The position numbers and the translations under genes are program-made. This document shows positions 10,022 to 12,087 of a stretch of 13,996 nt of DNA, piece after piece. The stretch lies in assembly GCA_022566355.1 (NCBI GenBank), contig JADFJB010000117.1:1-13996 (forward strand), in the 5' to 3' direction. The notes under the pieces were generated by a model. That model worked only from the letters and a program-made list of their open reading frames with translations. It was not told the origin of the DNA and did no database searches. Within the stretch, counting starts at the first letter, position 1. The number at the start of each line of letters is the position of its first letter. This stretch comes from a candidate division KSB1 bacterium (GTDB lineage Bacteria > Zhuqueibacterota > JdFR-76 > DREG01).

Positions 10022-10214
10022 ATGGAAGGCATCCAATTTTTGATTGATGAAAAAGGTAATAAAAAAGCAGTTCTTATCGATCTTGATAAGCACGGGGATT
10101 TATGGGAAGATTTTTATGACAGGTTAGTACTATCATGATAGGATTAATGAACCACGAGAAACATTGTCTGAAGTCAAAGAAAAATTAGTAGAGCAAAAGA
10201 AGCTGGATGGATGA
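10022..10214 (+). pseudogene. Type II antitoxin relic (Phd/RelB-like), frameshifted
   Basis: After AAAGGTG (10011-10017) an ATG opens MEGIQFLIDEKGNKKAVLID and continues LDKHGDLWEDFYDRLVLS into TGA at 10136-10138. One base later another frame reads DRINEPRETLSEVKEKLVEQ and KKLDG to TGA at 10212-10214. Skipping the T at 10136 joins the two into a 63-residue protein with the form of small antitoxins: an N-terminal DNA-binding part with a conserved 'DEKGNKKAVLIDL' strand, then the 'EDFYD...S..NEP...SxEEVKxxL' C-terminal arm that wraps the toxin. As sequenced it cannot make the toxin-binding arm. The next reading frame starts 8 bases before its end, the usual coupling of antitoxin and toxin. A single-base sequence error is the alternative, but the broken toxin beside it favours decay. 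Confidence 0.65.
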
Positions 10215-10323
10215 ATATCACATTACTTTTACACGATCCGCCCGAAAAGAACTTGGGGGTTCCTTATTTAATATTATCCAGAAACTCTTTTACAGTTTTT
10301 GTGTTTGGATGATTCTCACCTAA
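10207..10323 (+). pseudogene. RelE/ParE-type toxin remnant, truncated after about 16 codons
   Basis: The ATG at 10207 overlaps the antitoxin stop by 8 bases and encodes MDEYHITFTRSARKEL, the standard opening of RelE/ParE-family toxins: a first beta-strand YxITFTxSARKEL, then the start of helix 1. A complete toxin would have about 85-95 residues. Here the similarity stops at about 10254, and the frame runs through 22 unrelated codons, in antisense to the end of the NB-ARC gene, to TAA at 10321. Core strands and the catalytic C-terminal residues are absent, so it cannot be an active nuclease or gyrase poison. No continuation of the toxin is seen upstream of the NB-ARC gene. The recognition rests on a short motif plus the antitoxin context. 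Confidence 0.6.
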
Positions 10324-12087
10324 TGTTTTTAAGAATATCGTGTATGCAGATAACCACAAATCCCGCGCTTTTTCATATTCACCCAAATCTGAATATCTAA
10401 GTCCAAGATTATTTTGTAATGTTGAAATTTCAGAACAATCCTTTCGAGGAAATAGTTTTAGAATAGCGTCACCGAACGGTATATATTGAAATTTATCAAG
10501 CGGATTTTCTTTTGCCTGGTCGAGAGATAATAAGTTTGTGGCTCTATCAATTAAAAATTCCAGATCACCGGCTGTGGTTTTTATTTGGGAGAAAAGAGAT
10601 TCAACCAGTACCGGGTGCATTTTGTAACTGTCTGTTTTGTCCTCTTTTTGTATATACCCTTTTAAGTAAAGATTTTCCAGGACGCCGGAAAATTCTTCCT
10701 GCCATTCCAATTCTTCTACTTGCAATATCTCTTTCAGAAATTCGTAATCCAACCATAAATTGGGTAAGGCTGTAAACTGTTTTAGCAGGTAATTTTCATG
10801 CTTCCCAAGATTACTAATCTTAAAAATTCCTGTTAAGTATGATTTTATTCGCTCTATTTTTTCATAATTAGAATGATCTATATCGATACCGGCAATGGCA
10901 TCTATTGCAAATGCTTCCTGCACTTTTTCAAAACTCCAATGATTTTTTTGGGCGGATTTGGCAAGTATTTCGATGGTCAAAGTATGCAATTCCACCCGGT
11001 TAACAATAACACCCATTTGCTCATCTGAATAGCGTTTGCAAAACTTTTTAAACAACAGGATGGCTTCCCCTTCAGGTAGAAAATCCAGGTCTATTATGTG
11101 AAATGGCGTGATGCGCTCGCGGGAAGTTACCAGCACATGCCAGGCCGGCGCTTTTGGAAGTTCTTGATAATTTGCGGATAAGGATTCGTTCGCATTGTCT
11201 ATGATCAGAAGCTTGGGTCTCTTGCTTTCTAAAATACGCAATTCATTTAAACATGCCCTCAACTGCTGATTCGGTTGAATATCCTGAATTTTCAAATTTT
11301 TGAGTAAAGAATAATTTGCCAGGATCGCTTCTTCTACAGTATTCTCAATGGTCAGCCACACGATATGGTCATAATCTGCATAGAAAGTATCAGCATAAAC
11401 AGCCGCGAGGGTTGTTTTTCCTATACCACCCATACCATTAATGAGGGCAGTTTCTTTATTTTGTAATAATGAGTCCCGCAGGGCTTGCAGCTCTTTTTTC
11501 CTGCCAACGATATTCTTTTTCGAAACCCTGCTCAATGAGGTAAGCTCTTTGGGGAATGTACCTGATGGAGTTTTATCTATAAGTTTCTTTACATCTTCTT
11601 TAATTTCAGATGTATCCTGTTTTATTGCTTTAATAGCAGTTAAAGCTGCATCAAACGTTGCAGAAATATTAAAAATTTCTTCTTTATAATTCTCATCAAT
11701 AACAAGGCTTTTTAATTCCTCGTCTGCTTTTATGTTTTGTTCGAAAAGGGTAAGAAAAATATTTATTTGATTTTGGTCGGGGGGTATAATATTCGGATTC
11801 TTTCTTAATTCAGTCTGAATCGTATTTACATCAGGTTGATATTTTCCTTTACTAAAAAACCTGCATTTTAATAACTCATCTACAAGTATTTGAGATTTAT
11901 AAAAAGCAAATTTTCCCTGGTTGTCTTCTATTGGATCATTTTTTTTATACTCCTCAATTGTATGATCAATTACTTTTGCCAGTCTTTTTTCAGCAGCATT
12001 CTTTACTGTGAGTATATTGTCTAAGCCTTTATTAATCGAAAAAGACGCAATCGATTTTGCAACGAAAATTCCTATGGAGGTTAACAT
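10264..12087 (-). CDS. NB-ARC STAND NTPase with unassigned N-terminal region and one C-terminal TPR unit
   Basis: A 607-residue signal-transduction ATPase of the NLR-like STAND class. Residues 1-190 are mostly helical and highly charged, match no family I recognise, and occupy the place of an effector or sensor domain. Residues 150-172 look like a short coiled coil. The NB-ARC core begins with IVGRKKEL (193). It has the P-loop GMGGIGKTT (218-226), Walker B LLIIDNA (Asp297), sensor-type VTSRE (320-324), a GLP-like helix near 365-378, and an MHD-like motif with Met490-His491 in YKMHPVL. The C-terminus (about 553-607) is one kinesin-light-chain-type TPR (STLQNNLGLRYSDLGEYEKA, then GENHPNTKTV). 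Proteins of this build sense invaders and oligomerise; many are antiphage. The ATG has a weak GAAGTG site. It looks more AT-rich than the metabolic genes and lies beside a toxin-antitoxin relic, which suggests acquisition. Confidence 0.85.
   Translation of the reverse strand: MLTSIGIFVAKSIASFSINKGLDNILTVKNAAEKRLAKVIDHTIEEYKKNDPIEDNQGKFAFYKSQILVDELLKCRFFSKGKYQPDVNTIQTELRKNPNIIPPDQNQINIFLTLFEQNIKADEELKSLVIDENYKEEIFNISATFDAALTAIKAIKQDTSEIKEDVKKLIDKTPSGTFPKELTSLSRVSKKNIVGRKKELQALRDSLLQNKETALINGMGGIGKTTLAAVYADTFYADYDHIVWLTIENTVEEAILANYSLLKNLKIQDIQPNQQLRACLNELRILESKRPKLLIIDNANESLSANYQELPKAPAWHVLVTSRERITPFHIIDLDFLPEGEAILLFKKFCKRYSDEQMGVIVNRVELHTLTIEILAKSAQKNHWSFEKVQEAFAIDAIAGIDIDHSNYEKIERIKSYLTGIFKISNLGKHENYLLKQFTALPNLWLDYEFLKEILQVEELEWQEEFSGVLENLYLKGYIQKEDKTDSYKMHPVLVESLFSQIKTTAGDLEFLIDRATNLLSLDQAKENPLDKFQYIPFGDAILKLFPRKDCSEISTLQNNLGLRYSDLGEYEKARDLWLSAYTIFLKTLGENHPNTKTVKEFLDNIK

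What the first reader, a model, noticed from the sequence alone, without database searches (positions are those of the whole stretch)
10264..12087. NB-ARC STAND protein with an unassigned N-terminal domain: candidate antiphage sensor
The NTPase core is intact (GMGGIGKTT, LLIIDNA, VTSRE, MHP), but the first 190 residues match no effector family I can name (no TIR, nuclease, protease or transmembrane signature). The sensor end is reduced to one kinesin-type TPR. STAND ATPases with unusual N-termini are a known source of new antiphage systems, and the neighbour is a broken toxin-antitoxin module, as in defence-rich accessory loci.
Basis: partly seen in the sequence, partly recalled or inferred. 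Interest (0 to 1): 0.62.

Follow-up and report, generated by a model that had tools for sequence, protein, structure and literature searches.

The report
Bacterial immune receptor with swapped effector
This is a bacterial NLR-like (NB-ARC) receptor gene whose supposedly unknown front end turns out to be the same exchangeable front domain carried by the known antiphage protein Avs2 of E. coli, which makes it very likely a single-gene immune receptor built by domain swapping; its trigger and killing activity are untested.

Summary
The gene is real: minus strand, 12087 to 10264, 607 aa, intact NB-ARC/STAND core. The main correction concerns the N-terminus. Residues 1-165 are not without relatives: they are homologous to residues 1-165 of Avs2 (PDB chain 9o4e, phmmer 6e-10, the only hit; hhalign probability 98.6%; shuffle z of 21 or more). 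In E. coli and Vibrio Avs2 this domain occupies an exchangeable N-terminal slot: NCBIfam's Avs2 model starts only at residue 178, and other Avs2-like proteins carry a PD-(D/E)xK-like or SMEK domain there. The rest of the window protein is unrelated to Avs2: an Apaf-1/NRC-like NB-ARC with winged helix and minimal TPR arm, 41% identical to a same-order protein with a different N-terminus. So it is an effector swap between two receptor frames. A 51-53% full-length relative with nine TPRs sits alone between lepB and lepA in another phylum. The single TPR is a first/last-repeat hybrid, not a C-terminal truncation, though assembly collapse is possible. Most likely a stand-alone antiphage STAND. The domain shows no recognised catalytic motif and its most hydrophobic stretch is its extreme N-terminus; a membrane-acting or clustering effector is plausible but unproven. 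New variant of a known kind.

The parts
10264..12087 (-). whole gene: NB-ARC STAND receptor, 607 aa, ATG at 12087
   Evidence: intact ORF, Pfam NB-ARC, full-length relative in L011
11593..12087 (-). N-terminal domain, residues 1-165, homologous to residues 1-165 of Avs2 (E. coli, Vibrio, PDB 9o4e)
   Evidence: phmmer 6e-10, BLASTP 7e-12, hhalign 98.6% E 1e-15, shuffle z 21
12013..12087 (-). most hydrophobic stretch of the N-terminal domain, residues 1-25
   Evidence: top hydropathy window starts at residue 1-4 in all four homologues examined; low confidence in the model
11518..11592 (-). linker helix region, residues 166-190
   Evidence: structure model, low confidence; the Avs2 match ends by about 142-156 and the L002 match begins at 171
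11020..11517 (-). NB-ARC nucleotide-binding domain, residues 191-356
   Evidence: Pfam 9.6e-11; model matches NRC1 NB-ARC Z 20.2 and Apaf-1 Z 19.5
11410..11436 (-). P-loop GMGGIGKTT, residues 218-226
   Evidence: sequence; identical in L011, GLGGIGKTT in L002 and L003
11191..11211 (-). Walker B LLIIDNA, residues 293-299
   Evidence: sequence
11116..11130 (-). sensor motif VTSRE, residues 320-324
   Evidence: sequence
10573..11019 (-). helical and winged-helix regions, residues 357-505, with the MHP (MHD-like) motif at 490-492
   Evidence: sequence; structural match of 189-505 to plant NRC1 NB-ARC
10267..10572 (-). C-terminal arm and minimal TPR sensor, residues 506-607; hybrid first/last TPR at 557-607
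   Evidence: TPR_10 at 558-595; 511-607 matches KLC1 TPR, Z 12.2 over 93 residues; hybrid repeat
10022..10138 (+). neighbouring RelB-like antitoxin remnant, broken frame
   Evidence: sequence, weak RelB-like match E 0.05
10207..10272 (+). neighbouring RelE-like toxin remnant cut short at the edge of the STAND gene
   Evidence: sequence reading, no Pfam hit

Best explanation
A stand-alone NLR-like (NB-ARC STAND) immune receptor that carries an Avs2-type N-terminal effector module on an NB-ARC/winged-helix/TPR frame. Proposed working: at rest the NB-ARC is closed with ADP; a ligand, most likely a phage protein, is sensed through the C-terminal arm and TPR; ADP is exchanged for ATP, the receptor oligomerises through the NB-ARC, and the clustered Avs2-type N-terminal domains become toxic and stop the infected cell. 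Shown here: the architecture, the homology of residues 1-165 with Avs2, the swap of frames, and the intact switch motifs. Inferred: antiphage role, ligand, oligomerisation and toxicity. The nature of the toxic act is open; I lean towards a non-catalytic helical effector that acts by clustering, possibly on the membrane through its hydrophobic N-terminus (about 1 in 3).
For: Residues 1-165 share ancestry with Avs2. The domain sits in an exchangeable slot of Avs2: NCBIfam Avs2 starts at residue 178; most plasmid Avs2-like proteins align to E. coli Avs2 only from residues 146-168 onwards, and those examined have PD-(D/E)xK-like (sequence reading) or SMEK N-termini. 87 of 5,426 complete E. coli genomes hold the domain, and every record listed names the gene avs2. 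The same NB-ARC frame carries another N-terminus in L002 (41% identity from residue 171 on) and, more distantly, a TIR domain in L003. The structure model matches Apaf-1, plant NRC receptors, MalT and the archaeal TPR-STAND 6mfv. Patchy spread (1 of 82 genomes of its phylum), a relative in another phylum and lower G+C than its flanks fit horizontal gain. A held paper summarises Avs2 as sensing phage protein at the C-terminus, oligomerising with ATP and activating a toxic N-terminal effector (PMC12724215).
Against: No defence genes are adjacent in the window or around L011. The TPR sensor is minimal, so the receptor may have lost its ligand-binding surface or be an assembly collapse of repeats. 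No biochemical activity was found for the N-terminal domain by sequence or fold. Bacterial STANDs also include regulators such as MalT and AfsR.
Confidence: 0.68

Rival explanations
1. The N-terminal domain is a nuclease or other enzyme of a divergent fold, so that the receptor kills by cutting nucleic acid as other Avs2-like proteins are expected to.
For: Other Avs2-like proteins carry a PD-(D/E)xK-like domain in the same slot (sequence reading). A held paper describes Avs1-4 effectors collectively as nucleases (PMC12931631).
Against: hhalign finds no relation to one such PD-(D/E)xK-like N-terminus or to the SMEK one. The predicted domain is mostly helical. The 24 columns invariant across the family (M1 K20 D23 L36 I40 T43 P52 F62 Y63 S65 L72 P98 P102 P103 Q107 F111 L125 K126 L128 E132 Y134 K135 I138 F139) show no recognised nuclease motif.
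Confidence: 0.2
2. An adaptor: the N-terminal domain is a homotypic or heterotypic recruitment domain (death-fold-like in role) that passes the signal to a partner encoded elsewhere.
For: Small helical domain without an evident active site.
Against: No candidate partner was evident next to the window gene, L011 or the E. coli and Vibrio avs2 genes looked at. Avs2 is described as a single-module system.
Confidence: 0.15
3. A regulatory STAND (transcription or development) unrelated to defence, like MalT or AfsR.
For: AfsR and MalT are among the sequence or structure relatives of the core; the L011 and window neighbours are housekeeping genes.
Against: No DNA-binding domain was found. The N-terminal domain is shared with a defence protein. 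The gene is absent from nearly all relatives.
Confidence: 0.1
4. A decayed receptor: internal TPR repeats were lost, so the gene no longer senses anything.
For: One hybrid TPR against nine in L011; decayed toxin-antitoxin pair next to it.
Against: The ORF is intact with all switch motifs and a proper C-terminal cap repeat; L002 has only two TPRs with the same kind of cap.
Confidence: 0.15

Closest known systems
Avs2 (AVAST type 2), E. coli/Vibrio lineage with this N-terminal domain; PDB 9o4e
   Same: Homologous N-terminal domain of about 165 residues at the same position, followed by a STAND NTPase; single gene
   Different: The NTPase is NB-ARC instead of the Avs2 core, and the C-terminal sensor is a short TPR arm instead of the roughly 1,000-residue Avs2 sensor; no match to Avs2 profiles
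Bacterial NB-ARC-TPR STANDs (L002, L003; distant: FxSxx_TPR NF040586)
   Same: NB-ARC, winged helix and kinesin-light-chain-type TPR frame; L002 41% identical over 171-596
   Different: Their N-termini are different (L002 unidentified, L003 TIR)
Apaf-1, CED-4 and plant NRC resistosomes
   Same: NB-ARC and winged-helix fold (best Z 12-20) with P-loop, sensor R and MHD-like motifs
   Different: N-terminal domain not shown to be CARD or CC; bacterial TPR sensor instead of WD40 or LRR
TPR-sensor STAND of 6mfv, and MalT (8bob)
   Same: STAND switch with repeat sensor (Z 17)
   Different: Repeat arm much shorter; different N-terminus or output domain

Membership tests
STAND / NB-ARC receptor | P-loop, Walker B, sensor R, winged helix with MHD-like motif | tested here: met
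   motifs at 218-226, 293-299, 320-324, 490-492
STAND / NB-ARC receptor | C-terminal repeat sensor | tested here: met
   one kinesin-type TPR, 558-595, 511-607 fits the KLC1 TPR fold; minimal
STAND / NB-ARC receptor | ligand-induced ATP-dependent oligomerisation | not testable with these tools
   needs purified protein
Avs2 | N-terminal domain of the E. coli/Vibrio Avs2 lineage | tested here: met
Avs2 | Avs2 STAND core and C-terminal sensor (NCBIfam NF041813, PADLOC Avs2 profiles) | tested here: not met
   no Avs2 hit for the window protein or L011; significant BLASTP similarity to Avs2 is confined to residues 4-142
Avs2 | recognition of phage terminase and protection against phage | not testable with these tools
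   needs a phage assay
TIR, SMEK or PD-(D/E)xK effector STANDs | corresponding N-terminal domain | tested here: not met
   no Pfam hit; no profile similarity to one SMEK and one PD-(D/E)xK-like Avs2 N-terminus
HeLo/MLKL/CC-type membrane-perforating domains | four-helix bundle with membrane-inserting N-terminal helix | tested here: inconclusive
   helical model, hydrophobic first 18-20 residues, but no Pfam or fold match and low confidence in residues 1-20

The most novel reading that the evidence does not exclude
The Avs2 N-terminal domain is a transferable, non-nuclease effector family of its own, used by at least two unrelated STAND receptor frames (Avs2 and NB-ARC-TPR), that kills by ordered clustering, perhaps by inserting its hydrophobic N-terminus into the membrane like plant resistosomes.
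Probability: 0.25. Interest if true: 0.7.

Novelty: new variant of a known kind. Interest (0 to 1): 0.5.

Why it matters
It defines the Avs2 N-terminal domain as a portable module found on two unrelated receptor frames. That gives a compact 607-aa protein in which to study an effector otherwise buried in a 1,484-aa protein, and it suggests a search for the same module elsewhere. It is also a clear case of effector swapping between NB-ARC and Avs2-type STANDs, and the one-TPR arm would be the smallest sensor of its group seen here if it is not an assembly collapse.

Tried and rejected
Pfam, NCBIfam and PADLOC with residues 1-190 or 1-169: only chance-level hits. PADLOC PDC-M04B (E 0.016 with the L011 domain) was followed to real family members in 10 of 395 genomes; the four loci read are proteins of a different sequence type next to a DUF3800-like gene, so the match was rejected as chance. 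Foldseek and VIA-align with the N-terminal model: no match with E below 0.001 or Z above 5.6; 9o4e did not appear, which excludes nothing. tblastn of the domain in plasmids and phages: no match with the window query, but two Vibrio Avs2 genes with the 9o4e fragment as query. A whole-protein scan of viral contigs found nothing; the domain alone found only Avs2-type loci. Within E. coli the domain and the Avs2 core were each found in 87 genomes, so exchange is seen only between distant lineages. An empty-site test failed: the flanking genes are not adjacent in relatives. No flanking repeats suggesting a mobile element. No TPR remnants downstream of the stop. The original Avs2 papers (Gao 2022, Bechon 2024) are not held, so what is published on the activity of this particular domain was not checked.

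Full report
What is there. The finding's coordinates hold one intact gene, on the minus strand (12087 down to 10264), 607 aa. NB-ARC motifs are as described and Pfam NB-ARC is above its cut-off. The gene is A+T-rich (30-41% G+C in windows across it) against about 40-50% in most of the flanking genes. The rest of the 14-kb contig carries metabolic and transport genes (DUF72, alcohol dehydrogenase, a TPR protein, part of a TonB receptor). A broken RelB/RelE-like pair lies at 10022-10272, its toxin-like frame failing at the 3' edge of the STAND gene.

The N-terminus is not unassigned. Against all PDB sequences, residues 1-170 hit exactly one chain up to E 10: 9o4e, Avs2, residues 40-149, E 6e-10. 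BLASTP of the whole protein with E. coli-type Avs2 (L014) gives 31% over 4-142, E 7e-12, and nothing else significant; the L011 relative gives 30% over 162 positions of L018, E 1e-17. Profile-profile comparison of the two groups: 98.6%, E 1e-15. Shuffled queries never came near (z 21-26, 2,000 shuffles each). Invariant positions include F62-Y63-x-S65, P98, P102-P103, L125-K126-x-L128, E132-x-Y134-K135-x-x-I138-F139.

In Avs2 that domain sits in an exchangeable slot. The NCBIfam Avs2 model starts at residue 178 of L014, and four of the six PADLOC Avs2 models that match it do so only from residues 163-164 on. On plasmids, Avs2-like proteins from Rhodothermus, Staphylococcus, Acetobacter, Haloplanus, Burkholderia and others align with L014 only from residues 146-168 onward. 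Their own N-termini of 159-185 aa show the FEELC...D(A/G)G(I/V)EC...GWQ(A/V)K pattern of PD-(D/E)xK nucleases (my reading; no Pfam hit) or a SMEK domain.

The rest of the protein belongs to another frame. Residues 171-596 are 41% identical to L002, a protein of the same length from the same order with a different N-terminus; L003 has the frame with a TIR domain. The full model (mean pLDDT 76) matches plant NRC1 NB-ARC (Z 20.2, 302 residues, 4.0 A), Apaf-1 (Z 19.5, 390 residues, 5.5 A), the TPR-STAND 6mfv (Z 17.3, 337 residues, 5.0 A) and MalT (Z 17.1, 364 residues, 5.1 A).

The closest relative, L011 from a deltaproteobacterial MAG, is 51-53% identical over 1-606 with nine TPR units, and sits alone between lepB and lepA (gene names are my reading of the ORFs). 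The window's lone TPR is a hybrid: its first half scores best with repeats at 547 and 631 of L011 (547 is the first repeat and shares its LQNNL start), its second half only with the last one (69 against 25 for the next). So the array contracted internally, in the genome or in the assembly.

Spread. The domain is in 1 of 82 genomes of the phylum and 1 of 395 drawn from the phylum of L011, was not found in the phage collection, and is found in Avs2 of 87 of 5,426 E. coli genomes and of some viral-contig and Vibrio plasmid records. This patchy spread fits horizontal transfer.

How it probably works. By analogy with Avs2 (PMC12724215) and STANDs in general: sensing by the C-terminal arm, ATP-dependent oligomerisation, activation of the clustered N-terminal domains, death or arrest of the infected cell. 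Sequence and model show a mostly helical domain without a recognised active site, with the most hydrophobic stretch at the extreme N-terminus in all four homologues examined. I therefore lean to a non-enzymatic effector; a nuclease remains possible. Residues 1-20 of the model are of low confidence, and fold searches with the domain were uninformative.

Membership. It is an NB-ARC STAND receptor. It is not an Avs2: the defining core was tested and is absent. It carries an Avs2-type N-terminal domain. Novelty: new variant of a known kind.

Noticed in passing
window 10022-10272: Decayed RelB/RelE-like toxin-antitoxin pair: the antitoxin frame is broken and the toxin-like frame is lost where the STAND gene ends, suggesting an insertion or deletion boundary.
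   Followed up: partly
L002 (residues about 20-120 of its 606-aa ORF): NB-ARC-TPR receptor of the same order with a different N-terminus that includes a G-rich stretch (NLQGNGAIVVKEAHGGGITID) of unknown role.
   Followed up: no
L040, L041, L043, L044: Avs2-like plasmid proteins (one of them archaeal, Haloplanus) with PD-(D/E)xK-like N-termini in the slot that E. coli Avs2 fills with the domain studied here; the pattern is a sequence reading, without a Pfam hit.
   Followed up: partly
L042:2524-6828: Avs2-like protein on a Staphylococcus equorum plasmid with a SMEK domain in the N-terminal slot.
   Followed up: partly
L011:8001-10817: Nine near-identical TPR units of 42 aa; the array may vary in number between strains or collapse in assemblies.
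   Followed up: partly
L045-L048: PADLOC PDC-M04B members lie directly next to a DUF3800-like gene as a conserved two-gene unit in the phylum of L011.
   Followed up: no
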